Source: Methanomicrobia archaeon
GTDB lineage: Archaea; Methanobacteriota_B; Thermococci; Methanofastidiosales; NM3
NCBI GenBank assembly: GCA_030603445.1
Contig: JAUVXU010000003.1
Coordinates: 67,739-131,738, forward strand
Direction of reading: 5' to 3'
DNA: 64,000 nucleotides
Under the pieces are notes generated by a model. The model worked only from the letters and a program-made list of their open reading frames with translations, made no database searches and had not been told where the DNA came from. Positions 1,931 to 45,691 of the stretch are shown piece after piece. A program made the translations under genes and the position numbers. Within the stretch, counting starts at the first letter, position 1. Every line of letters starts with the position of its first letter.

Positions 1931-3271
1931 ATGATGTTTAACGAAGAGTATCGTCCTAGATCCTTTAAAGAAATACATGGACAAAACAAACCACTAAAAG
2001 ACATCATAGCATGGCTTAACACATGGCCAAACGACAAGAAGGCACTGTTAATACACGGCCCTTCTGGTGTAGGAAAGACTGTTGCAATATATGTTATCAA
2101 AAATGAGATGGACCTAGACTTAATAGAGCTCAACACGTCTGATACCCGTAATGCAGAGACCATATCAAGAATAGTTGGGAATGCTGCAAGCTCAAAAGCA
2201 CTCTTCTCAACAAAGAAGGCCATCCTAATTGATGAGGCAGACAACATAAAAGGGCGCTCGGATATTGGGGGGATCCGTGCCCTTGCAAAAGTTATTCAAG
2301 AAACGGAAAATCCCATCATACTCCTTGCTAACGACCCGTATAAGCTGCCTATATCGATAAAAGACCTTTGCAATATCATACGTTTCAACTCACTAAGAAG
2401 CGCAAGCATAAGAAACAGGCTTAAAGAGATAGTTACAGCAGCGAACATAAAGATAAGTGAAGATGTCTTAAAGGAGCTAGCATCTAAATCTGCAGGGGAT
2501 ATGAGGGCAGCGATAAACGATCTAGAATCGCTTGGCCGCACCATCTACCAAGAAGACGTTGAGCAGCTGTTTGACAGGGATGTTAAGAACAGCATATTCG
2601 AAGGGCTTACAGCTATCTTCAAAAGCAAAGGCACATCATGCCGGAAAGTATTCTATGATATTGACATGCCTCCTGAAGAGATACTTTACTGGATAGATGA
2701 GAATATGCCAAGAATTTATGATCCCCGGGACGTGGCATGCGCATACTACTATCTCTCCCGTGCCGATGTCTTCCTTGGCAGGGTGAACAAAAGACAATAT
2801 TATCGCCTATGGGCTTACGCTTCTGACCTAATGACAGGTGGCGTATCTGTATGCCACAAATACAACGTTAACTTCGCACGCTACGAGTCCCCGGGTTACT
2901 TCAAATCACTAGGAAGAACGAAAGCTAAACGAAAGCTAACGAAGTCTGCCCTTTTCAAGATAGGTGCAAAGACACACTCATCCACATATGACGCCAAAGC
3001 GTTCCTGCCAATGCTAAACTACGCATGTATAAAACCTGAGAGCGGTGTAAATGTTGCCCGCTACTTCGGATTTGACCCTGATGAGTTGGAACTTGTCTGC
3101 CCAAAAACAGCAAAAGACATCTTATCTTTAATAAAAAAAGAGGAAGCAAAGATAAAGCAGCTTGAACAAAAGGCCAGGAAGAAAAAGGAAAAAGACGAGG
3201 AAAAAAAGAAACCACAGATAAAAAAATCCTCTTCAGTAAAATCCCAGCAAACATCTTTATTTCAATTCTAA
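1931..3271 (+). CDS. rfcL: Replication factor C large subunit
   Basis: Large clamp-loader subunit, 446 residues. It has the RFC box EEYRPRSF, Walker A GPSGVGKT (43-50) and Walker B LIDEADNI (DEAD at 101-104), and it lacks the SRC arginine finger, as large subunits do. After the collar domain there is a highly charged Lys/Glu linker of about 50 residues, and the protein ends in QTSLFQF, a clear PIP box for binding PCNA. The start codon follows the rfcS stop by 2 nt. Its TAA stop overlaps, tail to tail, the TAG stop of the opposite-strand flavoprotein gene. Confidence 0.97.
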   Translation: MMFNEEYRPRSFKEIHGQNKPLKDIIAWLNTWPNDKKALLIHGPSGVGKTVAIYVIKNEMDLDLIELNTSDTRNAETISRIVGNAASSKALFSTKKAILIDEADNIKGRSDIGGIRALAKVIQETENPIILLANDPYKLPISIKDLCNIIRFNSLRSASIRNRLKEIVTAANIKISEDVLKELASKSAGDMRAAINDLESLGRTIYQEDVEQLFDRDVKNSIFEGLTAIFKSKGTSCRKVFYDIDMPPEEILYWIDENMPRIYDPRDVACAYYYLSRADVFLGRVNKRQYYRLWAYASDLMTGGVSVCHKYNVNFARYESPGYFKSLGRTKAKRKLTKSALFKIGAKTHSSTYDAKAFLPMLNYACIKPESGVNVARYFGFDPDELELVCPKTAKDILSLIKKEEAKIKQLEQKARKKKEKDEEKKKPQIKKSSSVKSQQTSLFQF

Positions 3272-4332
3272 TGCAAAAACAGCTTTAAATTTCTCATAAT
3301 TACAGACAATGTTTTAGGATTTAACAAAAATGTTTTGATGGCAGTGGAATGCTTCTCGAAGTCTGCTTCTGCCTCTATATATTTCTTCTTTTCCATTAAT
3401 ACGGAAAAAAGAAGACTCAAATCGTTCTTGGAAATGTGTTCGTATAGCCTGCGGGCGGCAAGCCCTAAGCGAATTTCTCGGCCAAATTCCTTGTTCCAAT
3501 ATTTTTGGTAACGTTCTGGTGCGCCCTCGCCAACAGCCTTTGCAAGCAGTTCTGCACCACGCAACCCATAATAAAGTCCGCCTCCTGTCGTGGGTTTTGT
3601 CTGTGCCGCAGCATCCCCCAAGAGAAAAGCGCCATCCTTGACAAGCTCCGCTCTTCCAACAGGTATCGGCGCCTGTATAAAATCTATGACCTCGCCCTTG
3701 ATGCCAAACTTCTCTCTCATGGCATCTACGCCTTTCATGCTTCCGATAGCACCAACGCGCACGATACCATTTCCTTCTGGTATTGCCCATGAGAAAAAAG
3801 GTCGATTTATATCAACAATTACCATATGTTCATCCTCAAGCTCTGTCCTTATCCTCTGCTGGCATCCCGAGAAGTAACGTATGCTGCTTTTCATTTCCAA
3901 TGATTTTCTCACTATTGAAACTGGGCCATCGGCACCTATGATGGCATCGGCACAAATCGATGAGCCGGGCGTTTTAATATGAAACTTTCCAGAGGGATCC
4001 TTGGCCACCGACACGACCCGTTGATCATACTCGATAGAGATATCAATTGCAAAAGACCTGTCAAATCCGTACCTGTCAAGAACAAAAGCCACGTTTTTTC
4101 GCTTAAGGAAAAACCCAGTGTCATTTAGAAAAATATGCGCACCGTCGATATTATTAATGACATGGCGAGATCCAAATTTATCCACAAGCTTCTTTCCCAC
4201 AAGCCCGGCGCAATGTATCGGGGCACCCACCCTGTCGTGCTCCTCAAGGATTGTGACCTCATGGCCTTGCTTCAAAAGCAACTGTGAAACATGCAACCCG
4301 CAAGGCCCGGCACCGACAGTTACAAACTTCAT
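3268..4332 (-). CDS. FAD-dependent oxidoreductase, geranylgeranyl reductase family
   Basis: A 354-residue flavoprotein. The N-terminal dinucleotide-binding motif is GAGPCGLHVSQLLLKQG followed by EEHDRVG. A second FAD motif, LLGDAAAQTKPTTGGGLYYGLRGAELLA, is characteristic of the geranylgeranyl reductase (GGR) family, which in archaea saturates the isoprenoid chains of ether lipids. The start MKFVTV is chosen because the FAD motif follows directly and a TATA box (TTTATATA on this strand, about 4353-4361) sits some 25 nt upstream, which implies a leaderless mRNA. Longer upstream starts would run through this promoter. Exact substrate is not provable from sequence; other flavoprotein hydroxylase-like roles are possible. 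Confidence 0.85.
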   Translation of the reverse strand: MKFVTVGAGPCGLHVSQLLLKQGHEVTILEEHDRVGAPIHCAGLVGKKLVDKFGSRHVINNIDGAHIFLNDTGFFLKRKNVAFVLDRYGFDRSFAIDISIEYDQRVVSVAKDPSGKFHIKTPGSSICADAIIGADGPVSIVRKSLEMKSSIRYFSGCQQRIRTELEDEHMVIVDINRPFFSWAIPEGNGIVRVGAIGSMKGVDAMREKFGIKGEVIDFIQAPIPVGRAELVKDGAFLLGDAAAQTKPTTGGGLYYGLRGAELLAKAVGEGAPERYQKYWNKEFGREIRLGLAARRLYEHISKNDLSLLFSVLMEKKKYIEAEADFEKHSTAIKTFLLNPKTLSVIMRNLKLFLH

Positions 4333-5326: not shown

Positions 5327-8152
5327 ATGACATTAGAATCCTTAGAATTCAACAAACTTGAAAAGAAATGGCAAGCAAGATGGGCTAAAGATAATATTTT
5401 TGAATCAGACCCAGATAGCAGGGAAAAATTCTTTCTAAACATACCTTACCCCTACATGAATGGCTTTTTACATATGGGGCGCCTATTCACATATCTTAGG
5501 GGAGAAGTTCTTGCACGATACAAGCGCATGAATAACTATAACGTGCTTTTCCCGTTTGCGTTCCATTGTACTGGGAGCCCAATAGTAAACGCCGCTAAGC
5601 GCATAGCTGAGGGAGAAGAGAAACAGGTAGATATCCTAAAGAAAATGGGCATAGAGGATGACCAGATACCTAAATTCTCCAGTCCCAAATATTGGACAGA
5701 ATTCTTTCCTTCAAAAACAAAGGAACACCTGCAAGCCATGGGGCTTTCAATTGACTGGCGACGCTCATTTATTACCACCTCCCAAAACCCCCACTATGAC
5801 AATTTCATCCAGTGGCAGTTCAGGACCCTTAAAAAGAAAGGTTATATCGTCAAAGGTGCTCACCCTGTAATTTGGTGTAGCAAATGCCAAAATCCAGTAA
5901 GCGACCACAGCAGACTAGAAGGGGAAGGAGAAACTCCGCAAGAGTTCACTCTACTAAAGTTCAAGTATGGCGACGAATACATTATTGCAGCAACTCTTCG
6001 CCCGGAGACCGTGTTTGGCCAGACAAATCTATGGGTCGACCCTGAAGAAGAATATGTGCGTGCAAAGGTCGATGAAGAGATATGGATAATCTCCATGCCA
6101 GCCGCACAAAAGCTTGCAGACCAGGAAAAGGAAGTTGAGATATTAGGAACTGTAAAAGGGAGCGAGATAATAGGCAAGAACGCTATTGCCCCTGTAATAG
6201 AGAAGTCAATCCCAATACTGCCATCAGCGTTTTGCAATCCATGCAAGGGGACTGGCATAGTTACGAGCGTGCCATCAGATGCCCCGGATGATTGGATGGG
6301 ATTAGTGGACCTTAAAAATGATCCTGAAATGCTTGCAAAGTATAACATAGATAAAAAAGAAATAGAGAAAATAGAGCCTGTATCTATCTTAATCTCAAAA
6401 GGATGGGGTCCGTTCCCTGCAAAAGAGATCTGCGAGAAGATGTGTATAAAAAATCAGCATGACCGTGAAAAACTCACCATGGCAAAGAAGGAAATATACA
6501 AGTCTGGATTTTATACAGGTATCATGAACAAATCCTGCGGGAAATATGCTGGAATGAGTGTTGAGGAAGCAAAGGAAAAAGTAAAGCAGATGATGCTTAA
6601 AACAGGCGATGCAAGCGTTATGCATGAACCATCAGGCGATGTTATATGCAGATGCCTAGTCAATTGCACTGTAAAAATAGTGCGCGACCAATACTTCATA
6701 GCCTACGGCGATCCAGAATGGAAGAAGCTTACGCACAAGGCATTCTCAAACATAAAATTCTATCCTGAGCTTATTCACAAGCAGTTCGACTACGTGGTGG
6801 ATTGGCTTAACAATTGGGCTTGTACAAGAAAACTTGGGATTGGCACTAAATTACCCTGGGACGAGAAATGGATGATAGAATCACTATCGGATTCTACCAT
6901 ATACATGGCATACTACACCATCGCCCATAAAATAAGTGAGATAGATCCCGAAAAGATTTATGATGGATTCTTTGACTATGTCTTCTTAGACAACGGACCA
7001 ACTTCACTTGAAGTGGCAGAGGAGATTGGAAAGGATGTACAGTTCGTAGAGTCGCTAAAGACCGAGTTCAACTATTGGTATCCTTTTGATCTTAGAACAT
7101 CTGGAAAAGACCTTATACAAAACCACCTCACATTCTGCATATTCAATCATACAGCCATCTTTCCTGAGAAACACTGGCCCCGGGGCATAGGCGTCAACGG
7201 TTGGCTCTTAGTTGACAATGAGAAGATGAGCACTTCAAAAGGAAATGTCTACTTATCAAAAGAACTAGGCGAGAAATACGGGGCAGATGTTGTGCGCATT
7301 GGCCTAATGTACAGCGGGGAGGGTATTGATGATCCAAACTGGGAAACAAGCTTCGTAGAAGGTGTTGGAGACAAACTCACAGCATGGTACAACTTTGCCA
7401 CACAACACTACAACAAGGGGCGCGAGGATGTTCAGTATATAGACAAATGGTTTGAGTCCATCGTACTAAACCTCATGGCAGAAGTAAGTGTATCGATTGA
7501 AGAGATGATGTATAGGACTGCCATCCAAAAGGGTTACTTTGACATGCAACGTGCTCTCAAGTGGTACTTACGCAGGACAGAAGTTCCAAACAAGGAGCTT
7601 ATCAGCAGGTTCATAGAAGTGCAGACAAAACTCCTAGTGCCATTTTGCCCGCATGTGGCAGAGGAGATATGGGAAGCTATAGGCAATCATGAGTTCATAT
7701 CAACTGCTGCATGGCCAACTCCATGGGCAGAACCAGACGAGAATATGATTGCAGCAGAAGATTATATCAAGGATGTAATAGATGACATAAAAGAGATAAT
7801 AAAGGTCGCAAAAATAGAGAATCCAAACACAGTATATATCTACACCACCCCCTCATGGAAATGGGACGTCGTTAAAATAGCTACAGATGTGCAGGATATG
7901 AAACAAGCAATGGGGCAGGTCATGCAAGATGAAAAGATGAGAAAGCATGGCAAAAAGGTTTCTAAGTTCTTAACGACCATCATCAAGAACAGGATGTTTA
8001 TGGATTATATAGATGAAAAAAGCATACTAACACAAGCAAGATTATTCGTATCAAAAGAGATTGGGGCGAAAATAGAGATAGACACAGACTATGATCCTGA
8101 AAACAAAAAAGATATTGCAATGCCTAGAAGAGTGGCAATCTATATAGAGTGA
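5327..8152 (+). CDS. leuS: Leucyl-tRNA synthetase, archaeal type
   Basis: Charges tRNA-Leu with leucine. At 941 residues it has the usual archaeal/eukaryotic length. Class I signatures: the HIGH-type motif HMGR at 49-52 within YPYMNGFLHMGR, and KMSTS at 633-637 followed by KGN. The CP1 editing domain is present (TLRPETVFGQTNLWV, the threonine-rich editing signature) and the Cys-rich CSKCQNPV insertion precedes it. The archaeal order, with the C-terminal anticodon-binding domain and a KIEIDTDYDPENKK-like tail, is intact. ATG is preceded by GGTGGG. A hairpin overlaps the stop codon (see the terminator entry). Confidence 0.98.
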   Translation: MTLESLEFNKLEKKWQARWAKDNIFESDPDSREKFFLNIPYPYMNGFLHMGRLFTYLRGEVLARYKRMNNYNVLFPFAFHCTGSPIVNAAKRIAEGEEKQVDILKKMGIEDDQIPKFSSPKYWTEFFPSKTKEHLQAMGLSIDWRRSFITTSQNPHYDNFIQWQFRTLKKKGYIVKGAHPVIWCSKCQNPVSDHSRLEGEGETPQEFTLLKFKYGDEYIIAATLRPETVFGQTNLWVDPEEEYVRAKVDEEIWIISMPAAQKLADQEKEVEILGTVKGSEIIGKNAIAPVIEKSIPILPSAFCNPCKGTGIVTSVPSDAPDDWMGLVDLKNDPEMLAKYNIDKKEIEKIEPVSILISKGWGPFPAKEICEKMCIKNQHDREKLTMAKKEIYKSGFYTGIMNKSCGKYAGMSVEEAKEKVKQMMLKTGDASVMHEPSGDVICRCLVNCTVKIVRDQYFIAYGDPEWKKLTHKAFSNIKFYPELIHKQFDYVVDWLNNWACTRKLGIGTKLPWDEKWMIESLSDSTIYMAYYTIAHKISEIDPEKIYDGFFDYVFLDNGPTSLEVAEEIGKDVQFVESLKTEFNYWYPFDLRTSGKDLIQNHLTFCIFNHTAIFPEKHWPRGIGVNGWLLVDNEKMSTSKGNVYLSKELGEKYGADVVRIGLMYSGEGIDDPNWETSFVEGVGDKLTAWYNFATQHYNKGREDVQYIDKWFESIVLNLMAEVSVSIEEMMYRTAIQKGYFDMQRALKWYLRRTEVPNKELISRFIEVQTKLLVPFCPHVAEEIWEAIGNHEFISTAAWPTPWAEPDENMIAAEDYIKDVIDDIKEIIKVAKIENPNTVYIYTTPSWKWDVVKIATDVQDMKQAMGQVMQDEKMRKHGKKVSKFLTTIIKNRMFMDYIDEKSILTQARLFVSKEIGAKIEIDTDYDPENKKDIAMPRRVAIYIE

Positions 8153-8176
8153 TCCACTCTATTTAACCTCTTTTTT
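8144..8176 (+). terminator. Hairpin over the leuS stop codon followed by a T-tract
   Basis: ATAGAGTG and CACTCTAT form perfect 8-bp arms around a 3-nt loop; the leuS TGA lies inside. About 10 nt later comes CTCTTTTTT. An almost identical hairpin covers the stop codon of rps8e at 25 kb. A terminator role is inferred. Confidence 0.55.
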
Positions 8177-8250
8177 CACCAGGCAACGTGAGAGATCATT
8201 CTTTTTTTAAAATAACGATGTGAATTGTTGTTCCACAACTTTCCAAAATA

Positions 8251-8260
8251 TTTATAATAA
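8251..8260 (+). promoter_or_regulatory. TATA box of the trxB-like gene
   Basis: TTTATAATAA, centred about 27 nt upstream of the ATG at 8283, with no ribosome site between. This fits a leaderless transcript and decides the start codon against a longer upstream reading. Confidence 0.6.
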
Positions 8261-8282
8261 TCTTCATATTTTACATTTTAGT

Positions 8283-9191
8283 ATGTATGATGTTGTCATA
8301 GTCGGAGGGGGCCCCGGGGGCCTCACAGCAGCACTTTACTGTATCAGGTCAAACTTGAATACACTTCTCATTGAAAAAGAGTTTATTGGAGGGAATGTGT
8401 CCTACGCAGGTTTAATTGAAAATTATCCTGGTTTCCCCGAAGGAATAAAAGGGTTCGAACTAGGACAAAAAATGGAAAACCAAGTAAAAAATACAGATGT
8501 TGAGATAAAATATGGTGTAGTCAAAAAAATTGACTTTAAAAACATGAAAATAATTCTTGAAGATGAGGATATCAAGACCTCATCTATCATCCTGTCCCCT
8601 GGGCTTACCCACAAGAAACTTGATGTTCCAGGCGAGGAGAAGTTTATTGGCAAAGGCGTAGTCTACTGCACTACATGCGATGGCCCGCTTTACAATGGGA
8701 AAAAGACGGTCGTTGCCGGACGGGGAATTCCAGGAATAACGGCCGCCTTGTATCTCGACGAGATTGCAAAAAGCGTCATACTAGTTACTCCCACCAAGGA
8801 ATTAAAGGCAAAAGAAGCGATATATCTTGACAAAATAAATGCAAGCAATGTTAAGGTCATCACAAATACCACGATAAAAGAATTACAAGGGCAAAAAATG
8901 CTTGAGAAGGTAGTTATAAAGCACAAGGACAGCGGCGAGGAAAAAGTCCTTGATGCAGATGGGATCTTCGTTAACATAGGAAAAATACCAAACACAAAAT
9001 TCCTTCATGAGGGTGGTATTGCTCTTGACAAAAAAGGATTTATCGTAATAGATGCTACCCAGAAGACTTCAATTGATGGGGTCTATGCCATAGGCGATGT
9101 GACAACAGACCCATATAAACAGATATCTACTGCAGTCGGTGACGGTTGCAAGGCTGCACTTAATATTGCAAAAATACTAAAAGACAGGTGA
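8283..9191 (+). CDS. trxB: Thioredoxin reductase-like flavoprotein
   Basis: Low-Mr thioredoxin reductase fold, 302 residues. FAD site: VIVGGGPGGLTAALYC at the N-terminus. The redox-active disulfide is C129-T-T-C132 in YCTTCDGP, and the FAD C-terminal motif is VYAIGDVTTDPYKQISTAVGDG. The pyridine-nucleotide domain is unusual. The glycine motif reads VVAGRGIPGITAALYL, and the HRRxxxR element that binds the NADPH 2'-phosphate is replaced by VTPTKELKA. The reductant may therefore be NADH or a deazaflavin, as in the known methanogen F420-dependent relatives (inference). The next gene, a thioredoxin-like lipoprotein, starts 4 nt after the stop. Confidence 0.9.
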   Translation: MYDVVIVGGGPGGLTAALYCIRSNLNTLLIEKEFIGGNVSYAGLIENYPGFPEGIKGFELGQKMENQVKNTDVEIKYGVVKKIDFKNMKIILEDEDIKTSSIILSPGLTHKKLDVPGEEKFIGKGVVYCTTCDGPLYNGKKTVVAGRGIPGITAALYLDEIAKSVILVTPTKELKAKEAIYLDKINASNVKVITNTTIKELQGQKMLEKVVIKHKDSGEEKVLDADGIFVNIGKIPNTKFLHEGGIALDKKGFIVIDATQKTSIDGVYAIGDVTTDPYKQISTAVGDGCKAALNIAKILKDR

Positions 9192-9195
9192 ATAC

Positions 9196-9789
9196 ATGAA
9201 CAAACGCATAATTCTTACATTTTTTTTATTAGCAGGCTTGCTCTTATCAGGGTGCATTTCAGGAGGGAGTGAAGAACCCTCACCAACAGCCGCCCCAACT
9301 ACCACCATAGCTCCGACAACGCTGCCGCCGACAACAGCGCCTACGGTAACGGTAACTCCACCGATAATATATGGTAATGTAACATGGCAATACTATGATG
9401 ATGCAGTTGCACAATCTGTTGATGAAAACAAGCATGTTTACGTATACATGTGGCGCCAAAGCTGCCCCTATTGTGATATGATGAAAGATCGCACCTTCAA
9501 AGATCCGGATGTTGTTGCGTATCTTGAGGAGAACTTTGCCGTAGTTGCTGTGAACGTCTGGTCAAATGACCCGATATCTTCAAAAAATCCAGGATTGTCA
9601 GGTGCTTATTTAGGGAGTGCTTTTGAAATTCCTGGCGCGCCATCATCAGGTTTCATAGACCCAGATGGCATCCTAATAGGTCCAATTCCAGGATACAAGG
9701 ATTCTGAAGAGTTCTTATTAATATTAGAATACGTTGCAACGGATTCCTATAAAAGTATGACCTACCAACAGTTCATAGACTCCAAGTAA
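9196..9789 (+). CDS. Thioredoxin-fold lipoprotein
   Basis: A 197-residue exported protein. The signal peptide MNKRIILTFFLLAGLLLSGC ends in a lipobox (LSGC), so the mature protein is probably lipid-anchored outside the membrane. A Thr/Pro/Ala-rich linker of about 35 residues follows, then a thioredoxin-like domain (WQYYDDAVAQSVDENKHVYVYM) with a CPYC active site and a cis-Pro region near IPGAPSSGFIDPDG. The pattern resembles the thioredoxin_7/DUF255-like SoxW group. It is co-transcribed with the trxB-like gene, yet the two products lie on opposite membrane faces, so electrons would need a membrane carrier. Function as a disulfide or thiol reductant for surface proteins is inferred. Confidence 0.85.
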   Translation: MNKRIILTFFLLAGLLLSGCISGGSEEPSPTAAPTTTIAPTTLPPTTAPTVTVTPPIIYGNVTWQYYDDAVAQSVDENKHVYVYMWRQSCPYCDMMKDRTFKDPDVVAYLEENFAVVAVNVWSNDPISSKNPGLSGAYLGSAFEIPGAPSSGFIDPDGILIGPIPGYKDSEEFLLILEYVATDSYKSMTYQQFIDSK

Positions 9790-9953
9790 CCTCATGCATA
9801 TCATGAAATCCATGATTTTGTATTGTGAATACTTTAACAATAAAAATATAAAAAAGAGCTATTCCCACATATTTCCACAAAGATACTTTTAAATGAAAAT
9901 TAATATAAAAGAGTAAAAAGCTTTTATAATATAGAATCGGACTGTGAAAGTAT

Positions 9954-11993
9954 ATGGCAAATAGATGTGGAATATGCGGCAAAGGGATTAATCCTTCAGA
10001 AATAGCATCGTGCATGCACTGCAACACACCCTACCATTTTGGCTGTATAAAGGAACATCTTTTTACTAACAAGAGCTGCCCCCGCTGTGGCAGGACATCA
10101 TCATTGATGCACTATCGAAGAGGTAATAAAGGAAAGCCAGCACCGCAACCATCCAAAGAACCAACTGCCAAGATGCCATCACAAACACCTTCTCCAAAAT
10201 CATCTTTTGTATATGGGGGGACGATAAAGAAAAAAGCGCCACAGCCACATGCGCCTTCTCCTAAAAAAGAAAAATCACCTAAACAAAAAGGCATCAGTGG
10301 TCTATTCATAAGCTTCATCATTGTGCTGCTTCTATTGGCATCCACCTACTACGTAACTACGACGTATGTTGGGTATGCGCCTGTTCTCTCGGCCGACGAG
10401 CTCAGCAAAACGGTGATTCCCGGACAGGCTGTGGAATTCCCAATATCATTTGAGAACAGTGGTAATATTATCTCACATTACAATGTATATATTGACGACA
10501 AAAACAGCGCATTGCCTGATGAATTGGAACCTGTCCTTATGGATGATACCCCTGAATATGGAAAATCACTTTCCACTGTTGTTGAACCTGGTTCTTCCTT
10601 TCACTTTCGTTTGCGTGTCACTAGCGCCAGTGGTGTCTTGTCCGAAGTACAGGGAACCGTAATGGTAGTTGTAGAGTCACGTGATGGAAAATATAGTGAC
10701 AAAAAAATATTTACTATCACATCCCAAACCATATACAGCTATGAAGTCATCCAAAGTGATACCCAAAAATACGTATCTGCAGGTGGGACTGCCACATTCT
10801 CTGCAACCCTTGTGAACAAGGGAAATACTGTGGATACGTATTTTATCCGTCTTGAGAACACAACATCTGGATGGCAGTCGTCTCTACTTTATGATAAGGT
10901 AACAATAGAACCCAACATGTCTGCCCAGGTCCTCCTAACCCTCAAGTCGCCTGACGCAGCACCTGGTAATGAAAAAGGAGAGACTATTTTAAAAATTATG
11001 TCCCAAAATAACTCTAGTGACGTTAAGACTGTGAAATACAGCCTTATAGTGAATCCAACTTATGGATTTGATCTTCTTGTTGGTGATCACTCCAAAGTTG
11101 TGCTCCCTGGATCTACAACATCTTATACATTCAAAATACGCAACCAGGGTAACTCTTCTGACACGTATGATCTTCAGGCAGTGCCTGTCATGCCCTATGG
11201 GTGGAGCGTGGAACTCTCAAAGACCTCAGTTACAATAAGACAAGGCGAAGAGATGACAATAGGAGTGAGTATAAAGGTTCCAGAAAGCGCAGCGCCCAAT
11301 CAAAGTGGTATTGTTAATGTAAACATCGTATCTGCAGGCAATCAGGAAACAAAGAACCAAAATTTTGAAGTAACAACGGCAGAAGGACAAAACAAGATTG
11401 TGCTTGTGGAACTCTTTACGTCTGTGAACTGCACGTTTTGCCCCTATGCAGAAAATGCAGTAGAACAGCTTCTTTTTGATTATCCGGACAATTATATAGC
11501 CTTGGAATATCATCTCAATGACAGCTTAAACATAACTTTCTCGTCATCGCGTGCTGGACTTTATTCCATCCCAGGGACACCTACTTCGATGTTTGATGGT
11601 ACGCGCAAGGAAGCAGGTGGTTCACCCCTAACTTACAATAAGTATGTGACAAAGACCCAGGATCTTATCCAAGAAGAACTGCAGCTTCGTATAGACCTAT
11701 CACTCTCAGAGTCATCTGTGCCAGGCCACACGAATGTCAACGCCGTAATCAAGTCCACAGGCCTGCCAGCAGGCAAAGACTTAGATGTCTTCTTTGTCAC
11801 GTATAGCAACGGCGTGTCTAGTGGTTCCAAGACATTCAATCACGTCGTAGTTGATGGAGCAAAGCGGACATTGACATCTTTTGATAATATCGAGAACATC
11901 ACGCTTGCATTTGAGATCCCAGAAGATGGAGGTATTGTAGTCTTCGTTCAAGATAGATCTACAAAGAAGGTATATCAGGTCGCCACTATATGA
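9954..11993 (+). CDS. Membrane protein: cytosolic RING/PHD-like zinc finger, Ig-like repeats, C-terminal thioredoxin domain
   Basis: A 679-residue composite. Residues 5-45 carry a cross-brace zinc finger with Cys/His at 5, 8, 20, 23, 28 (His), 31, 42 and 45, a C4HC3-like spacing. A Pro/Lys/Ser-rich linker (55-113) precedes one transmembrane helix (about 114-134). The basic linker predicts that the zinc finger is cytosolic. The outside part has about three beta-sandwich repeats of the COG1470/NPCBM-associated type (ENSGNIISHYNVYI, VNKGNTVDTYFIRL, RNQGNSSDTYDLQA). It ends in a thioredoxin-like domain with C493-T-F-C496 (ELFTSVNCTFCPYAENAV) and an IPGTPTSMFDG cis-Pro loop. TATA at 9922-9931 supports the start. 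Function unknown; a disulfide-handling surface receptor is speculative. Confidence 0.85.
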   Translation: MANRCGICGKGINPSEIASCMHCNTPYHFGCIKEHLFTNKSCPRCGRTSSLMHYRRGNKGKPAPQPSKEPTAKMPSQTPSPKSSFVYGGTIKKKAPQPHAPSPKKEKSPKQKGISGLFISFIIVLLLLASTYYVTTTYVGYAPVLSADELSKTVIPGQAVEFPISFENSGNIISHYNVYIDDKNSALPDELEPVLMDDTPEYGKSLSTVVEPGSSFHFRLRVTSASGVLSEVQGTVMVVVESRDGKYSDKKIFTITSQTIYSYEVIQSDTQKYVSAGGTATFSATLVNKGNTVDTYFIRLENTTSGWQSSLLYDKVTIEPNMSAQVLLTLKSPDAAPGNEKGETILKIMSQNNSSDVKTVKYSLIVNPTYGFDLLVGDHSKVVLPGSTTSYTFKIRNQGNSSDTYDLQAVPVMPYGWSVELSKTSVTIRQGEEMTIGVSIKVPESAAPNQSGIVNVNIVSAGNQETKNQNFEVTTAEGQNKIVLVELFTSVNCTFCPYAENAVEQLLFDYPDNYIALEYHLNDSLNITFSSSRAGLYSIPGTPTSMFDGTRKEAGGSPLTYNKYVTKTQDLIQEELQLRIDLSLSESSVPGHTNVNAVIKSTGLPAGKDLDVFFVTYSNGVSSGSKTFNHVVVDGAKRTLTSFDNIENITLAFEIPEDGGIVVFVQDRSTKKVYQVATI

Positions 11994-12071
11994 TATCCGC
12001 CCCAATCAGGGAAAAACTATATATAATACATAACTATATACTTTAAATACATAAGTATATAAGTGGGAACT

Positions 12072-12482
12072 ATGGAGAGCCCTACGGATATAATGGCATT
12101 GCTAGAAGATATGAAAAAAGATCTTGAGCAGATAAAAAAAAACACGAGTGATAACAGTATTGTTGAGACCGTATCACTTGAAAACCTTAAACCTATTGGT
12201 GTGGATGTGACACTATGTGCAGACCTATTCAAGGCCCTGTCAAATGAGGAGCGCCTCAAACTGCTTACTGCCCTTGGGAGGGAGGACCACTACTTTGCCC
12301 AGCTAATTGCGCTATCCAACCTTGATAATAGCCCTTTAAGATTTCATCTTACAATATTAAAAGAAGTAAATCTAATCTCCCAGGAACGCTTCAGAGGCAA
12401 GTATGCAATAACGGATCTGGGAAGACAAGCCCTTTCCATATCATCATATTTTTTCCGCTTGATGCGTGAACAGGAAGTGTAA
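12072..12482 (+). CDS. ArsR-like winged-helix regulator with N-terminal coiled coil
   Basis: A 136-residue protein. A short coiled coil (ALLEDMKKDLEQIKKN) is followed by a winged helix (LFKALSNEERLKLLTALG, then SPLRFHLTILKEVNLI and a wing around RGKYAITDLGRQAL). The YFAQL segment before the recognition helix is common in archaeal regulators of this group. The start at ATG 12072 is preferred because the TATA box CTTTAAATAC (12041-12050) is about 26 nt upstream; a GTG three codons earlier is possible. It lies 2 nt upstream of a membrane-protein gene, which is the most likely regulated partner. No metal-binding Cys motif is evident, so the signal sensed is unknown. Confidence 0.82.
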   Translation: MESPTDIMALLEDMKKDLEQIKKNTSDNSIVETVSLENLKPIGVDVTLCADLFKALSNEERLKLLTALGREDHYFAQLIALSNLDNSPLRFHLTILKEVNLISQERFRGKYAITDLGRQALSISSYFFRLMREQEV

Positions 12483-12484
12483 AA

Positions 12485-14086
12485 ATGAAAGATAATATAA
12501 CAAAGAGGATTATAGATAAAATTGCGCTTGTATTTTTCGTATTATGGCTTGTTAGTCTAGCTACAAATGTGTTAGGCCGCTATGAATATAAGGAAACATT
12601 TCTATTTGCTGCTTTTTCCTTTTGGGTTTTAGGATCGTTTGTTGATGGGCTTACTAAGAGGCGCTATGCTAAAAGGAGGATATCTGTATCCTTAAGAAAA
12701 GGTGGAACCACTCTTTTTGGCATCTGGGTCCTACTATTAATATTTGAAGTTCTTGGGTGGCTGGGTGCCTGGTGGGAAGGATATAGCATTTATGCATTGT
12801 GGCTTTCGCTCCTTTGCTTTTCTAGCTCAGTGATAATAAACTCTATTGCCAAGAAAAGAGGATACTGGCAGATTAGATCCATTTTTTACACGACAGGCAT
12901 GATAATAGTCATCGTGTGGGCAGCGCTTAAGTATACTGGCAGCTATGTCGACTCGCAAGATGCCATACTTATTGGAGGCATTGCTCTTCTGGCAATTGGT
13001 TTTGTGATAGGTGCCTCAAAAAAAGAGGACGATTTTGAATTTTTTGTAGATGTAAAGAAAGAAATATCAGAAAAAATGAGGGAAGTGCCGGATTTAACGG
13101 AGACCGCAGAAAACGTGATGGCACTTGATGAATCTGTCAAAATAGGACAAGATCCCTCTGTAACTATCAAAAAGGGTGCGTTAAGTGTAGATATATACGA
13201 AGATGAGAGGCGCATAGGAACAGTTTACTTTGGGGAGGGGTCCTACAAAGTAGCAACAGAGATTTACACTTTTGAGGAGCCGTTTATGGGTTACTGCTAC
13301 TCGCATGGTGCAAAATGGGAAAAATACGCCCCAAAAAAACAAGCTGTAAAAGCTGAACAAAAACATTTTGATGCCATTGGTCTGACCAAAGAGGATATTA
13401 AGGAATTAGCTATAATACTTTCCACTAATGATTCGTCGGCACATGAAAGAATAGATGACGTGAAAGCACGATTAAAGTCTAGAAACACCGAGATAACCTT
13501 GCCATTTATGAAAATCATAGAAAGCAAGGAGGGGGAATATGTGAAGATAGGCCCTCTTGAAGTCGTGGACCTTCATGACAAAGGCAGCCGTATACGCTTC
13601 AAAGGAAAGGAGTTTGTAGAAAGAAATGGATATGAGAAAGACAAAGACATGCCAAGTGATCTCGTGTTTAAAATATTCACCACAGATGGCACGACCACAA
13701 TTGTCACAAACAATGGGAATACGCACCTTTCAACAGAAGAAGGCACTATTACTGTTGAAAATGACCTGCTTGAGTTCAACATCAAGAGTATAAAATATAT
13801 TAAGATGCCATCTATGCAAAGGCTTGAAGCGCCTAATCTGGATATAATAGTGAGAAAAGAAAAGAAAGTATCAGTAAAAATAGATGATTTCAAGCTAAAG
13901 GTGCAGGATGATGCTATTTCCATGGATCACAAAGGACGCCACATACACACTAGCAACGTAGAACAGGCTGATACCCTAAAGGAAATTGTAGCTGCACATG
14001 TCCCATATATCATAAAGGACGTCCTAAACGAATCATCTATAGCTCAAAATCAGTTGATGATGCAGCTCATTGAAGAACTGGATTAG
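12485..14086 (+). CDS. Polytopic membrane protein with large cytosolic beta-rich domain (unknown function)
   Basis: A 533-residue protein I do not recognise. The first 180 residues contain about six hydrophobic segments (for example IALVFFVLWLVSLATNVL, GTTLFGIWVLLLIFEVLGW and AILIGGIALLAIGFVIGA). A soluble region of roughly 350 residues follows, predicted cytosolic, with repeated short strands (TIKKGALSVDIYEDERRIGTV; TTTIVTNNGNTHLSTEEGTITV), which suggests a beta-helix or sandwich. It lacks a signal peptide. It is translated right after the winged-helix gene, so the pair resembles archaeal regulator/effector couples linked to envelope state. The C-terminus reads LMMQLIEELD. The 3' side has a pyrimidine-rich tract typical of an archaeal terminator. 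Confidence 0.7.
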   Translation: MKDNITKRIIDKIALVFFVLWLVSLATNVLGRYEYKETFLFAAFSFWVLGSFVDGLTKRRYAKRRISVSLRKGGTTLFGIWVLLLIFEVLGWLGAWWEGYSIYALWLSLLCFSSSVIINSIAKKRGYWQIRSIFYTTGMIIVIVWAALKYTGSYVDSQDAILIGGIALLAIGFVIGASKKEDDFEFFVDVKKEISEKMREVPDLTETAENVMALDESVKIGQDPSVTIKKGALSVDIYEDERRIGTVYFGEGSYKVATEIYTFEEPFMGYCYSHGAKWEKYAPKKQAVKAEQKHFDAIGLTKEDIKELAIILSTNDSSAHERIDDVKARLKSRNTEITLPFMKIIESKEGEYVKIGPLEVVDLHDKGSRIRFKGKEFVERNGYEKDKDMPSDLVFKIFTTDGTTTIVTNNGNTHLSTEEGTITVENDLLEFNIKSIKYIKMPSMQRLEAPNLDIIVRKEKKVSVKIDDFKLKVQDDAISMDHKGRHIHTSNVEQADTLKEIVAAHVPYIIKDVLNESSIAQNQLMMQLIEELD

Positions 14087-41342: not shown

Positions 41343-41546
41343 GTGGAGGAAAATGAATTAGATGCCAAGGAGAAGAAAATGTTTCTCCTAACTCCTGATG
41401 GAGCATTGAAAAATGTGACTTCTCAAGCCAAGATTACACGTTCACTCCTTAATTCGCCTTCCATCGACAAGGAAGAATTTCTAAATGTTCTTGAAAATTT
41501 GATTAAGGAACTTGAGGAAGAACTATCTAAAAATCCTCAGAAATAG
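41343..41546 (+). CDS. Hypothetical charged protein, 67 aa
   Basis: Not recognised. GTG start with weak upstream GGGTG. A short strand-like opening (KKMFLLTPDGALKNVTSQAKI) is followed by a charged amphipathic helix (KEEFLNVLENLIKELEEELSK), which suggests a small dimeric or partner-binding protein. It lies just outside the left end of the integrated element. Codon use is like the host genes. Confidence 0.5.
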   Translation: MEENELDAKEKKMFLLTPDGALKNVTSQAKITRSLLNSPSIDKEEFLNVLENLIKELEEELSKNPQK

Positions 41547-41681: not shown

Positions 41682-41749
41682 AAAAGAAAGTAATGGCGCC
41701 GAGGTAGGGATTTGAACCCTAGCTCCCCGGAGGGGAACTGGCTCTCAAG
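41682..41749. repeat. Left attachment site (att): displaced 3' part of tRNA-Ser
   Basis: 68 bp identical to 44975-45042. It contains the last 56 nt of tRNA-Ser(UGA), from the anticodon loop through CCA (minus strand), plus 12 bp downstream. The identity stops abruptly at the anticodon arm and the 5' half of the tRNA is missing, so this is a tRNA fragment left by integration and not a gene. Confidence 0.92.
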
Positions 41750-42179
41750 ACCCTCCTAGGGGTATTCTTCCTCGCCCATGCCATTCCACTGATTCGGTTT
41801 TGTACTCCTTACTAACGGAGAACTAATATTTAATATTTTACGAAATTGGCCTTTCGCCATTGCACAATGTATCCGTGGACACTTGTATAAATAACCCTTT
41901 GCACACATATCTAAACAAACATTGGTCCTTCCAATGTTCTTCCTCCTACAGGGCCCCGGGCCCACCTTTTCAGAGGGTGACTATGACAAAGGAAAAGATA
42001 CTGTCCGCGTGCTGGCTGCTCGTCATGTCGCAAGAATAGTGATGATTATTTTTCATATAATTGATTAATTATATGATTTAATTCAAAATAATTCCAATAG
42101 TATGAATATTAATCAAAAATATAGTAATATCAGGCGGTATGTTTATATCTAGGTATTGCGATATTGTTCCAGTGATACC
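41750..42179. other. Left end of the element, no gene seen
   Basis: Mixed composition. It includes two GGGCCC blocks separated by one base (41951-41963) and an 18-codon frame after GGGTGA (41983-42039) that looks like a gene relic. Frames on the minus strand here lack start signals and family resemblance. A TATA box GTTTATAT (about 42139-42146) serves the next gene. Confidence 0.5.
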
Positions 42180-43403
42180 ATGAAAAGGAAATACATCTGC
42201 ATACCAGTGATGGTATTGATGATATGTGCACTCTTCCCGGGGATGATGATCTCCGGGGACTGTGAAAGCTGCAGTACTGAAGATGTCACGCCGTATACCT
42301 CCCAGTATCTGCGTGAATCAAGTCTCGAAACCGACGAAATGCTTGATACACTGTTTCAGAATATTTCTAAGAAAACAGAATTACTCACTGAGATGCTCAA
42401 AAACGTACCATCCAAAGAAGATGAAGAGCTTTCCTCACTAATAGACGATTTCTACACAGATTACATATACTATCTTCATTACAATTACCAGAAAGCGACT
42501 CTAGAAACAGTAAGTGCAATGACAAGTGAGAGTAACAATTACTTGCTTATAAATGAGATAGACAAGCAGATAGAACGCTCCGAACTGGAGATGGCATTTC
42601 TGCAATACGAAAATTTGACACGTGAAGTTGATGCGCAGTATGATATTCTGAGATTATACTATGCCCCTACAGAGGACACACAGGTCGAGTATGGAGTAGT
42701 GTTTGATAACATTCTTTTCCTTTACAAAGAACTAACGAACCTTAATACACGTTATGCCAGACTCATGACGGAGTATAATATTTCACTACAAGCAGAAAAA
42801 CAAGAAATACTTATGAGATCTCTGGTAATATGCGACACTCCTGGAACTGGCGATAGCTTGCAAAGTTACCAACAATATTACATGGCAAGTTTTGCTTGGG
42901 TAAAAGCGTGGGTTGGTGTGTATAGCAGCCAGGTCCCAAACACAGATTATTTCATAGGGGAATTTTGTACTGGCACTAAAAACACGCTGGACGGGTACCT
43001 TGCTATCGCAAATGATGAGTATGATCCATGGAATGTTGGGTCCATTCAGGTAAAATACTTCTTCATAGCCAATCAGAGCACACACCAGCATAATGCTATT
43101 TACGAGGGGAATAGGTCGAACTATAACCTTAATGGCAACTATTCTATTGGGGGGAGGCAGGTGTCTTTTACAAATGGCACAGGATGGACATATGGCGTTT
43201 CATATGACGGCTCCAGCACGCCATCAAATGGGAACTATCGCTTCTACGTAAACGCGGATTGGTTTATTACGTACCAGGCCTGCTGCATACCGTCTTGGCC
43301 CCCCGATAATACAATATATCCCCAATGGTGCAATAAACACTGCGGCGGCTGCTTTGCATGCGATGATGGCGCGGACCAGAACTTTATTATTGATGAACCC
43401 TAA
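42180..43403 (+). CDS. Element cargo: secreted coiled-coil protein with Cys-rich C-terminus
   Basis: 407 residues, no family recognised. Signal peptide MKRKYICIPVMVLMICALFPGMMISGD; a long helical, probably coiled-coil region (about residues 40-225; TDEMLDTLFQNISKKTELLTEML, NEIDKQIERSELEMAFLQYENL); a beta-rich part with many Tyr/Asn (GNRSNYNLNGNYSIGGRQVSF); and a C-terminal Cys cluster (ACCIPSW, WCNKHCGGCFACDDG) likely forming disulfides or binding metal. The start is set by the signal peptide. The TAA stop overlaps the next start (TAATG), so both cargo genes are translationally coupled. An extracellular, perhaps cell-surface role is inferred. Confidence 0.75.
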   Translation: MKRKYICIPVMVLMICALFPGMMISGDCESCSTEDVTPYTSQYLRESSLETDEMLDTLFQNISKKTELLTEMLKNVPSKEDEELSSLIDDFYTDYIYYLHYNYQKATLETVSAMTSESNNYLLINEIDKQIERSELEMAFLQYENLTREVDAQYDILRLYYAPTEDTQVEYGVVFDNILFLYKELTNLNTRYARLMTEYNISLQAEKQEILMRSLVICDTPGTGDSLQSYQQYYMASFAWVKAWVGVYSSQVPNTDYFIGEFCTGTKNTLDGYLAIANDEYDPWNVGSIQVKYFFIANQSTHQHNAIYEGNRSNYNLNGNYSIGGRQVSFTNGTGWTYGVSYDGSSTPSNGNYRFYVNADWFITYQACCIPSWPPDNTIYPQWCNKHCGGCFACDDGADQNFIIDEP

Positions 43404-44128
43404 TGGCATATGGCTGTGATATAATAAAGAATAATCCTTGGCACACCATTCTGACACTGTCCCTCCTTTACTGCATAATGTGCAGTGGTTGCATAACAGA
43501 CAAGGGCAACGAAGAAACAATACCTCCGACAACGACAGTAGCGCCGACCACGGTACACACCCTGCCAATATACGCGTCCTTCCTGCAGGAGAAGATGGCG
43601 GAGTCGGAGGCCGCTTACGAGGCAGCATCGGCGGAATGGCAAAGAACCCTCGAGGCGTTCCTAGCCCTGGCGGGGTCGCCGGATTCGGGGCAGGACGATC
43701 TATATCAAGCGTACACAGACTACGATGCGGCGTTACGGGAATACGAGCGCGTGCTGCAGGAATACTGCCGCAGGTCGATACTGACCGAGTACACCATCAT
43801 CATCGAGGGAGACCTGCTGGCGCTGAAGAAGGAGACGATCCCTTTCAGTAGCCCGACCGGGATGACCTACACCTACGGGGTGCTGAACATGGGAGCTGAA
43901 GAATATATGGTCCACACAAGCGATATGGAGTTTCTTATCATGAGTGGCATTGGGGGGCAGGAATCTCGCCAGGAGCTCCTTGAGGCTATCGAAAGGATGG
44001 AGGAGTTCCTTCCAGAATACCACGACATGATCATAGGGTACGTTTACGGCAAACTGAACAAGGTTTTGGTCTGTCAATCGGTCTACTCGGACATCCTGGA
44101 ATACGGTTGCGACATCGGCTACATCTAA
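43403..44128 (+). CDS. Element cargo: lipoprotein with coiled-coil domain
   Basis: 241 residues, no family recognised. The signal region ends in a lipobox (IMCSGC), then a Thr/Pro linker (TIPPTTTVAPTTVHTLP), a helical coiled-coil part (LQEKMAESEAAYEAASAEWQRTLEAFLAL; QAYTDYDAALREYERVLQEYCRR) and a C-terminal alpha/beta domain (TYGVLNMGAEEYMVHTSDMEFLIM). Composition shifts to high G+C within the gene at about the linker, unlike its upstream partner. It overlaps the partner gene by one base. Probably anchors or caps the secreted partner at the membrane surface (speculative). Confidence 0.72.
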   Translation: MAYGCDIIKNNPWHTILTLSLLYCIMCSGCITDKGNEETIPPTTTVAPTTVHTLPIYASFLQEKMAESEAAYEAASAEWQRTLEAFLALAGSPDSGQDDLYQAYTDYDAALREYERVLQEYCRRSILTEYTIIIEGDLLALKKETIPFSSPTGMTYTYGVLNMGAEEYMVHTSDMEFLIMSGIGGQESRQELLEAIERMEEFLPEYHDMIIGYVYGKLNKVLVCQSVYSDILEYGCDIGYI

Positions 44129-44153
44129 TCCCGCAAGAAGCAAGACCCCCAGC

Positions 44154-44180
44154 CCTTTTCTTTTTCTTCCCTTTTTTTTA
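44154..44180 (+). terminator. Pyrimidine tract after the cargo operon
   Basis: Runs of T (CTTTTCTTTTTCTTCCC then eight T) follow the lipoprotein stop by about 25 nt. Archaeal terminators are often such T-tracts, so this probably ends the cargo transcript. Confidence 0.55.
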
Positions 44181-44183
44181 CCA

Positions 44184-44931
44184 TCAACATCTGCAGAACT
44201 GTCTAGCCTGTCCCTTGCACGAAGCCATCTTCGGCCTCTTCATGTGGGCCTTCCTGGCGTACTTCTTGACTAGCGCCCCCATGCTGTTGGGGGACATCTT
44301 GTTGCCCCTGCTCGAGGTGAAGAAATAGTCGTGCTCCGCATCGGGGCGGCGGCGGAGCCACTGGGCTAAGGCATCGGCGGCGTCCTTGTGGAGGATGCAG
44401 TCCGCCTCGGTATGGGGGTCTTGCTGCCGTGCACGGTGAGGACGCGCTCCTCCAGATTGAGATCTTATACCCTGATGTTTGTGACCTCCGTCCGGCGAAG
44501 CCCGCCGTACAGCATGAGGCACAGCATGAGGCACAGCATGGCGTAGTCCCGTATCGAGTCGCACGCGTACAGGAGCCTCGTCGCCTCTATCTCCGTGAGA
44601 TACGTCACGCCGAGGTATCGGTCGGCGGCTTGATGTCCGGGGGATCGATGTCAGCGTATCCGCAGTAGTGCTTCACTGTCTTGCAGTAGTTGCGCAGCCT
44701 TGATGCCGACCTATCATTGTCGAGGAGATGGGAATATACGGCGAGGAGATCCTCAGCGGAAGGGAAGGGCGTCCCAGCTCGCCTGGCTATGAACAGGTAA
44801 TCCTTCCTCAACCATTCGCAGTATGTCTTGGAAAGCCCTTTTGCCCTCAGGTGGGAATAAAATTTATCGGAGAACGTAATAAGGTCTGATTTCATGGGTA
44901 CTAGCCTCCCGAGCCAGTGTTCATATTTCAT
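44184..44931 (-). pseudogene. Tyrosine recombinase (integrase), multiply disrupted
   Basis: The N-terminal SAM-like core-binding domain is intact (FSDKFYSHLRAKGLSKTYCEWLRKDY; ASRLRNYCKTVKHYCGYADI). A frameshift near 44620-44628 moves to a frame encoding YLTEIEATRLLYACDSIRDYAML and GGLRRTEV, which contains the first catalytic Arg. That frame meets a TAA at 44465-44467. A second frameshift lies in the C-run near 44414-44418, and LHKDAADALAQWLRRRPD plus YFFTSSRGNKM continue in a third frame. The His-x-x-Arg and catalytic Tyr regions are missing. A 12-bp tandem duplication lies at 44511-44534. The gene must be inactive. Confidence 0.88.
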
Positions 44932-44974
44932 TAGGATATTATTACGGAAAACTAAAATAATGCCATATTTTCAC

Positions 44975-45042
44975 AAAAGAAAGTAATGGCGCCGAGGTAG
45001 GGATTTGAACCCTAGCTCCCCGGAGGGGAACTGGCTCTCAAG
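44975..45042. repeat. Right attachment site (att) inside intact tRNA-Ser
   Basis: Second copy of the 68-bp repeat. It overlaps the 3' part of the functional tRNA and 12 bp beyond its CCA, which includes the T-rich tRNA terminator (minus strand). Integration therefore left the tRNA gene and its 3' signal whole. Confidence 0.92.
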
Positions 45043-45076
45043 GCCAGCGCGTTTGTCCGAGCTCTGCCACCTCGGC
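44987..45076 (-). tRNA. tRNA-Ser (anticodon UGA)
   Basis: 90 nt, including an encoded CCA. The acceptor stem GCCGAGG pairs with CCTCGGC, discriminator G. The anticodon stem CTGGC/GCCAG encloses loop CTTGAGA, so the anticodon is TGA. A long variable arm (CCCC-TCC-GGGG type) marks a class II tRNA, and the T-arm is TAGGG-TTCAAAT-CCCTA. It is the integration target of the adjacent element; the element side supplies its present 3' part. Confidence 0.95.
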
Positions 45077-45115: not shown

Positions 45116-45691
45116 TTACCATGTAACAGAGGCATCTGGTTTCTTGCCTGCAAGCCATAGCATATATTCTGTTTTGCAGGCCGATTCCAAAACAGAAGTG
45201 TAGGAAAGGGCATCCTCTAATAGCTTAGCATGAACAAAAGATCCATGGCCTTTGAGTATTATCCCCTTATAATCACGTAATGCCTCAGATACCTTCTCAG
45301 CAGATTCATCACTTCCCACACCCAACTTAGCGCTCACAACAGGTATCTTATGAAAGAAGTAAGAACCTTCAACATTACGTGGAACTATCTCGCTGCATAA
45401 CATTGACATTGCAACAGCATATGGCGGATGCGCATGCACTATTGCAAGGGCCGGCGTCTTCTTGTAGATAGCCCGATGCACCTTTAGCTCAGTACTTGCC
45501 AGCAGCACCCCGCTATCATCCTCATGCACGCCTGTTTCTATAATGTCTTCTGATCGAAGATCACCAACAATTGAGCCACGCCTAGTGATAAAAATACGAT
45601 CCCCAGATCTGATAGAAAGATTGCCTGAGTGGGAACCTACAATGCCCAACCCGAAAAGAATCTTTCCTATACGCCTGAATTCCTCATACAT
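45116..45691 (-). CDS. Class II aldolase family protein (fuculose-phosphate aldolase-like)
   Basis: 191 residues. Zinc site HAHPPYA plus the distal His in LKGHGSFVHA; the catalytic acid in STELKVHRAIY. The N-terminus SHSGNLSIRSGDRIFITRRGS matches the FucA/AraD group. Archaeal relatives act as L-fuculose-1-phosphate or other 2-hydroxy-phosphate aldolases, so a retro-aldol reaction on a phosphosugar is expected, with unknown substrate. It overlaps the preceding aldehyde:ferredoxin oxidoreductase gene by 8 bp, and aldehydes made by the aldolase could feed that oxidoreductase (inference). Confidence 0.88.
   Translation of the reverse strand: MYEEFRRIGKILFGLGIVGSHSGNLSIRSGDRIFITRRGSIVGDLRSEDIIETGVHEDDSGVLLASTELKVHRAIYKKTPALAIVHAHPPYAVAMSMLCSEIVPRNVEGSYFFHKIPVVSAKLGVGSDESAEKVSEALRDYKGIILKGHGSFVHAKLLEDALSYTSVLESACKTEYMLWLAGKKPDASVTW

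What the first reader, a model, noticed from the sequence alone, without database searches (positions are those of the whole stretch)
41682..45076. Integrated element using a tRNA-Ser(UGA) anticodon-arm attachment site
A perfect 68-bp direct repeat (41682-41749, 44975-45042) flanks about 3.2 kb. The right copy is part of an intact tRNA-Ser; the left copy is a 3' tRNA fragment. Identity ends in the anticodon arm and extends 12 bp past the CCA, so the tRNA keeps its terminator. A tyrosine integrase remnant lies next to the tRNA. The element has no known replication or structural genes, only two exported-protein genes. It may be an undescribed archaeal satellite or cargo island.
Basis: partly seen in the sequence, partly recalled or inferred. 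Interest (0 to 1): 0.8.

Follow-up and report, generated by a model that had tools for sequence, protein, structure and literature searches.

The report
Trapped tRNA-integrated mobile element in archaeon
A 3.3-kb piece of foreign DNA carrying two genes for exported proteins inserted itself into a tRNA gene of an uncultured archaeon and is now stuck there because its integrase gene is broken; a second element of the same build sits in another tRNA gene of the same genome, so this is a small family of an otherwise well-known kind of mobile element.

Summary
A perfect 68-bp repeat (41682-41749 / 44975-45042) brackets 3.3 kb. The right copy belongs to the genome's only tRNA-Ser(UGA); the left is a displaced 3' half starting at the first base of the anticodon loop. 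Between them lie two intact exported-protein ORFs and a tyrosine integrase ruined by two frameshifts, a stop and loss of its last ~63 codons. A relative of another genus (G003) has the same flanking genes and one tRNA-Ser without the insert.

The same genome holds a second element of identical plan at tRNA-Gly(GCC): truncated integrase, ORF1 homologue plus a beta-propeller lipoprotein, exact 43-bp repeat from the anticodon loop to CCA, and empty sites in three relatives. The two share a ~240-bp promoter/signal-peptide block and a ~110-bp terminator-like block found nowhere else in the genome, with cargo in opposite orientation relative to int. Their integrases form a tRNA-linked clade found only in this archaeal family (inferred Methanofastidiosales/Theionarchaea order).

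Best reading: an immobilised, partly deleted cryptic integrated element (type II tyrosine integrase) carrying exported cargo; nothing supports a satellite. New member of a known kind. Function of the cargo remains unknown (ORF2 modelled as a helical lipoprotein).

The parts
41682..41749 (-). attR: displaced 3' half of the host tRNA-Ser(UGA), from anticodon loop to CCA plus 12 bp of T-rich terminator
   Evidence: exact copy of 44975-45042
41753..42039 (.). element arm between attR and the cargo block; no coding match, no integrase C-terminus found in it
42040..42289 (+). block A: AT-rich leader with TATA-like TTTATAT plus signal-peptide codons; 81% identical to G000:C41:10842-11085
   Evidence: only two copies in the genome
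42180..43403 (+). ORF1, exported protein (407 aa from ATG 42180): signal peptide, helical middle, Cys-rich C-terminus (WCNKHCGGCFACD)
   Evidence: family present in other archaea
43403..44128 (+). ORF2, putative lipoprotein (241 aa, lipobox CSGC, Thr-rich linker, helical bundle); its ATG overlaps the ORF1 stop by 1 nt (TAATG)
   Evidence: tandem paralogues in G002 and G003
44156..44267 (+). block B: pyrimidine tract plus ~90 bp conserved, terminator-like; 79% identical to G000:C41:13415-13519; truncated here at the junction with int
44260..44931 (-). broken tyrosine integrase (type II position): two frameshifts, one in-frame stop, 15-bp tandem duplication, last ~63 codons (HxxR and Tyr) missing
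44975..45042 (-). attL copy of the 68-bp repeat, brought in by the element
44987..45076 (-). intact tRNA-Ser(UGA), reconstituted at attL; single copy in the genome
40827..41237 (+). left flank: response regulator; with the small ORF 41343-41546 it marks the host side in G003 and G001
45116..45691 (-). right flank: aldolase-like gene (naming inferred), 84% identical in G003 and beside the single tRNA-Ser there

Best explanation
A small integrative element entered the only tRNA-Ser(UGA) gene by site-specific recombination of a type II (att outside int) tyrosine integrase, with strand exchange in the anticodon loop. The element's copy of the tRNA 3' half plus T-rich terminator rebuilt a working tRNA at attL (right); the host's own 3' half was pushed 3.3 kb to the left (attR). 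[Inferred from anatomy and empty site; crossover point inferred from the identity boundary.] The element carries an operon of two exported proteins as cargo. Its integrase later lost its catalytic C-terminus and reading frame, so it cannot excise itself and is trapped as part of the chromosome. [Integrase damage shown; immobility inferred.] A sister element in tRNA-Gly(GCC) of the same genome has the same plan and fate. What the cargo does for the cell is not known; most likely the products are cell-surface proteins expressed from the shared promoter block A. [Inferred.]
For: 68-bp repeat from anticodon loop to past CCA. Empty site with conserved flanks and a single tRNA-Ser in G003; G001 also has a single tRNA-Ser with no second copy. 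Second element G000:C41: tRNA-Gly(GCC) 10373-10448, int fragment 10559-10855, ORF1 homologue, PQQ propeller lipoprotein, exact 43-bp tRNA 3' half at 13946-13988; empty sites in G001, G002 and G004. Order tRNA -> int in the same orientation in window, C41, G003:C199 (intact int, tRNA-Gly(UCC)) and G004:C65 (broken int, tRNA-Val). These integrases (C41 fragment left out as too short) form one clade, support 1.000, apart from the XerA-like chromosomal ones. Blocks A and B occur once per element and nowhere else in the genome. Element composition: GC 0.473 vs 0.391 +/- 0.041; its tetranucleotide distance is reached by only 6 of 96 background windows.
Against: No circular form, excision or expression can be shown. 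Composition is only mildly aberrant and mixed: ORF1 0.42, ORF2 0.53, int 0.57. Cargo families also occur away from any tRNA or int (G001:C1, G003:C240/C42/C87, G009, G013), so the cargo is not element-specific. The G003 site is not base-for-base empty: it has a ~130-aa ORF between the small ORF and the tRNA. The genome is an assembly of 48 contigs and joins across 68-bp repeats could not be checked with reads.
Confidence: 0.87

Rival explanations
1. Exchangeable cargo block: the unit running from block A through the exported genes to block B moves on its own between tRNA elements and chromosomal places, and its insertion destroyed the integrase genes.
For: A and B are ~80% identical at DNA level between two elements whose integrases belong to different branches (window int vs the G003 int that is 88% identical to C41's: 34% in the N-terminal segment); cargo lies in opposite orientation relative to int in the two elements, and int is cut off next to B in one and near A in the other. 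G003:C240 shows cargo genes ending in B followed by another A.
Against: No recombinase, terminal repeats or target duplication were seen at the block ends; the missing int C-terminus is not found beyond the block, so it was deleted rather than interrupted; B is itself truncated at the int junction, which fits a deletion; only two complete A..B units seen.
Confidence: 0.12
2. Virus-dependent satellite or provirus remnant.
For: Small size, integrase, no replication genes.
Against: No hit of integrase, ORF1 or ORF2 in IMG/VR; no structural or packaging gene; cargo families are chromosomal in relatives.
Confidence: 0.05
3. Segmental duplication of the tRNA 3' half or assembly chimera, with no integration event.
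For: Single assembled contig; repeats can cause misjoins.
Against: Independent second case in another tRNA with boundary again in the anticodon loop, integrase remnant in the expected place in both, empty sites in relatives for both.
Confidence: 0.03

Closest known systems
Cryptic integrated elements (CIE) of Thaumarchaeota (Krupovic et al. 2019, PMC6563490)
   Same: Tyrosine integrase plus miscellaneous genes between att repeats, mostly at the 3' part of tRNA genes; sizes from 2.6 kb; often no recognisable replication gene.
   Different: Different archaeal lineage and integrase clade; here the integrase is dead and the intact genes are exported proteins. Thaumarchaeal att repeats are mostly under 26 bp, here 68 and 43 bp.
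pT26-2 family integrated plasmids with type II integrases in Methanococcales (Badel et al. 2019, PMC6972569)
   Same: Type II integrase near att; att covers the 3' half of tRNA-Ser, most often including the anticodon; tRNA-Ser(UGA) is one of the known targets.
   Different: No pT26-2 core genes recognised; that family was reported absent from Methanofastidiosa and Theionarchaea.
Captured (trapped) archaeal integrated elements, e.g. pST4 in Sulfolobus (She et al., cited in PMC8371274)
   Same: Integrase gene mutation fixes the element in the chromosome.
   Different: Here two elements of one genome have each lost their integrase, with cargo largely intact.
SSV-type (type I, suicidal) integrated elements
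   Same: Anticodon-loop crossover in a tRNA gene.
   Different: att is inside the int gene in SSV type; here att lies ~55 bp outside it.

Membership tests
tRNA-targeted integrative element (genomic island / cryptic integrated element) | intact tRNA at one end, displaced tRNA 3' fragment at the other | tested here: met
tRNA-targeted integrative element (genomic island / cryptic integrated element) | tyrosine integrase gene inside the element | tested here: met
   present but broken:
tRNA-targeted integrative element (genomic island / cryptic integrated element) | empty site in a relative | tested here: met
   G003:C25 with conserved flanks; second element: G001, G002, G004
tRNA-targeted integrative element (genomic island / cryptic integrated element) | excision and circular form | not testable with these tools
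   no reads; integrase lacks HxxR and Tyr, so self-excision is unlikely
Type II (pNOB8-type) integrase element | att site outside the int coding sequence, int not split by integration | tested here: met
   int start 44931, tRNA 3' end 44987; intact 281-aa int beside tRNA in G003:C199
SSV-type (type I, suicidal) element | int split into N and C parts at the two ends by att | tested here: not met
   no int sequence at the attR end
pT26-2 plasmid family | conserved core genes | tested here: inconclusive
   only two intact genes besides int, no Pfam match above cut-off; core genes were not searched one by one, and part of the element may be deleted
viral satellite | virus-related or helper-dependent genes | tested here: not met
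   no relatives in IMG/VR
Tycheposon (cyanobacterial tRNA-linked elements) | membership in the tycheposon recombinase/cargo families | not tested
   resemblance in plan only, recalled from memory; one search found the term in three papers, none read

The most novel reading that the evidence does not exclude
The A..B unit (shared promoter and signal peptide at one end, terminator-like block at the other, varying exported-protein genes between) is a mobile cassette system for archaeal surface proteins that is swapped, in either orientation, between tRNA-targeted elements with different integrases and chromosomal arrays.
Probability: 0.12. Interest if true: 0.65.

Novelty: new member of a known kind. 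Interest (0 to 1): 0.37.

Why it matters
Little is described of mobile elements in this archaeal order; the one survey found (PMC6972569) reports that pT26-2 plasmids are absent there. This gives a small family of tRNA-targeted elements with a lineage-restricted integrase clade, four tRNA sites and one intact integrase (G003:C199) to test. It also shows how exported-protein genes can become fixed in a chromosome: two elements in one genome, each with a dead integrase and working-looking cargo. The shared A and B blocks in opposite orientation raise a testable question of cargo exchange.

Tried and rejected
Viral contigs: no relative of integrase, ORF1 or ORF2. Plasmids and phages: only generic XerC/XerD-like matches under 32% identity among the listed best. 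Phylum-wide search at E <= 1e-32: integrase relatives only in G000 and G003. ORF1 fold too poor to use (mean pLDDT 45.8); ORF2 fold is a helical bundle (74.9) without significant PDB match. G000:C8:40060 integrase scrap has no tRNA or repeat nearby. G001's 5-kb gene cluster next to tRNA-Ser was considered as another element, but no second tRNA copy was found. Block B as a structured RNA: weak, two covarying pairs in four sequences. The missing int C-terminus was sought beyond the cargo block in both elements and not found.

Full report
Setting. The window is G000:C11:67739-131738 of a 1.62-Mb, 48-contig archaeal genome, 96% complete. Neighbour records name the order: G009:C126 has the same length as JACVGW010000046.1 (Theionarchaea SZ_28-30), G013:C93 the same as DAOVEQ010000094.1 (Thermococci archaeon CSMAG_1087), G005:C45 the same as JAGGSA010000044.1. 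From this and the class-level relatives I infer the Methanofastidiosales/Theionarchaea branch; the window's own record was not named.

Observation. The repeat is real and exact: 41682-41749 and 44975-45042, 71 bp with one mismatch. The right copy is part of tRNA-Ser(UGA) 44987-45076 (-), the only tRNA in the window; no third long copy exists in the genome. On the tRNA strand identity begins at the first base of the anticodon loop, continues through the variable arm, T arm and encoded CCA and 12 T-rich bases beyond. That is what strand exchange in the anticodon loop, with the element supplying the new 3' half and terminator, would leave (established model, reviewed in PMC8371274).

Contents. 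Between the repeats: ~290 bp without coding match; ORF1 42180-43403 and ORF2 43403-44128, overlapping by one base (TAATG) and so probably one operon; a conserved terminator-like stretch; and a broken tyrosine integrase on the minus strand, starting 55 bp from the tRNA. Three-frame translation and alignment to the intact 281-aa integrase of G003 show two frameshifts, an in-frame stop, a 15-bp tandem duplication (CLMLCLML) and an end at about codon 218, so HxxR and the tyrosine are gone. ORF1 and ORF2 have no Pfam match above cut-off.

Empty site. G003:C25 (another genus, same family) has the response regulator, a small ORF in the place of 41343-41546, one tRNA-Ser(UGA) and the aldolase-like gene in the same order without the insert or a second tRNA copy. 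It has a ~130-aa ORF at the same side, so the place is variable rather than bare. G001 has a single tRNA-Ser and a 5-kb cluster there, riboflavin-type genes included (naming by eye). G006, of another family, has an unrelated integrase next to its tRNA-Ser(UGA), with no second tRNA copy found before the contig ends. The 3' side of this tRNA is therefore a site of repeated change in the order.

Second element. A search for relatives of ORF1 and of the integrase led to G000:C41 in the same genome. There tRNA-Gly(GCC) 10373-10448 is followed by an integrase fragment (10559-10855, 87-88% identical to the G003 integrase over ~86 aa), an ORF1 homologue (10976-12148), a PQQ beta-propeller lipoprotein (12149-13342) and an exact 43-bp copy of the tRNA-Gly 3' half from the anticodon loop to CCA at 13946-13988. 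G001, G002 and G004 carry this tRNA-Gly with a neighbouring gene of C41 on one or both sides and no insert. Two elements in two different tRNA genes with the boundary in the anticodon loop both times rule out chance and make an assembly artefact unlikely.

Shared blocks. At DNA level the two elements share block A (window 42047-42289 / C41 10842-11085, 81%): AT-rich leader, a TATA-like TTTATAT and the signal-peptide codons; and block B (44156-44259 / 13415-13519, 79%): a pyrimidine tract and ~90 conserved bp. Each occurs twice in the genome, once per element (a further 36-bp partial match to B on C8 is weak). Relative to int the cargo points in opposite directions in the two elements, and int is cut off beside B in one and near A in the other. 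As B is itself shortened at the int junction and the int C-terminus is missing altogether, I read this as deletion after integration rather than insertion of the block; the element was probably larger, which also weakens any argument from missing replication genes.

Integrase clade. The window integrase, G003:C199 (next to tRNA-Gly(UCC), intact) and G004:C65 (next to tRNA-Val(GAC), broken) form one clade with support 1.000, away from the XerA-like integrases in most of the order's genomes; the C41 fragment was too short for the tree but is 88% identical to G003's. All four lie directly after a tRNA in the same orientation. At E <= 1e-32 no other genome of the 115 searched in the phylum has a relative.

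Cargo. ORF2 belongs to a lipoprotein family with tandem paralogues in G002 and G003; its model is a helical bundle without significant PDB match. ORF1 is a signal-peptide protein with a conserved Cys-rich C-terminus found also in G005, G009, G013 and other archaeal MAGs; its model is too poor to use. In C41 and in G009 the ORF1 homologue is next to a beta-propeller-like gene. The cargo thus comes from surface-protein families of this lineage (inferred). Composition fits a mixed origin: ORF1 GC 0.42, ORF2 0.53, int 0.57 against 0.39 for the host; loci of G001-G003 lie at 0.46-0.60.

Verdict. In kind it is a trapped cryptic integrated element with a type II integrase. New are the lineage, the integrase clade and the pair of sister elements with shared cargo ends.

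Noticed in passing
L101 (G000:C41) 10373-13988: Second element of the same plan at tRNA-Gly(GCC), with an exact 43-bp att repeat and empty sites in G001, G002 and G004.
   Followed up: yes
L102 (G003:C199) 2923-3939: Intact 281-aa integrase of the same clade directly after tRNA-Gly(UCC); the contig ends 860 bp later, so its element could not be seen.
   Followed up: partly
L103 (G004:C65) 2129-3020: Broken integrase of the same clade directly after tRNA-Val(GAC); no displaced tRNA copy found.
   Followed up: partly
L131 (G006:C19) 7163-13607: Unrelated 360-aa integrase with zinc ribbon next to tRNA-Ser(UGA), followed by two exported beta-propeller-type genes and an RHS-like gene (naming by eye); contig ends before any attR.
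   Followed up: partly
L165 (G014:C79) 1370-1500: What looks like a tRNA-Ser(GCU) 3' half starting at the anticodon loop, just upstream of an integrase of another clade: probably the att end of another element; read by eye only.
   Followed up: partly
L061 (G003:C240), L059 (G003:C87), L058 (G002:C115): Tandem arrays of ORF2-like lipoproteins and propeller proteins with conserved signal peptides and Thr-rich linkers; several contigs break inside these repeats.
   Followed up: partly
L064 (G001:C1) 5544-7001: Block A followed by what reads as the start and end of an ORF1 fused to a PQQ lipoprotein: an ORF1 gene apparently deleted internally, away from any tRNA.
   Followed up: no
L126 (G000:C8) 8050-8310: Scrap of a tyrosine integrase (HxxR region, in-frame stop) without tRNA or repeat, near the contig end.
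   Followed up: partly
L110 (G000:C2) 7289-7401: tRNA-Ser(CGA) with a 23-nt intron in the anticodon loop; also intron-bearing in G002 and G004.
   Followed up: no
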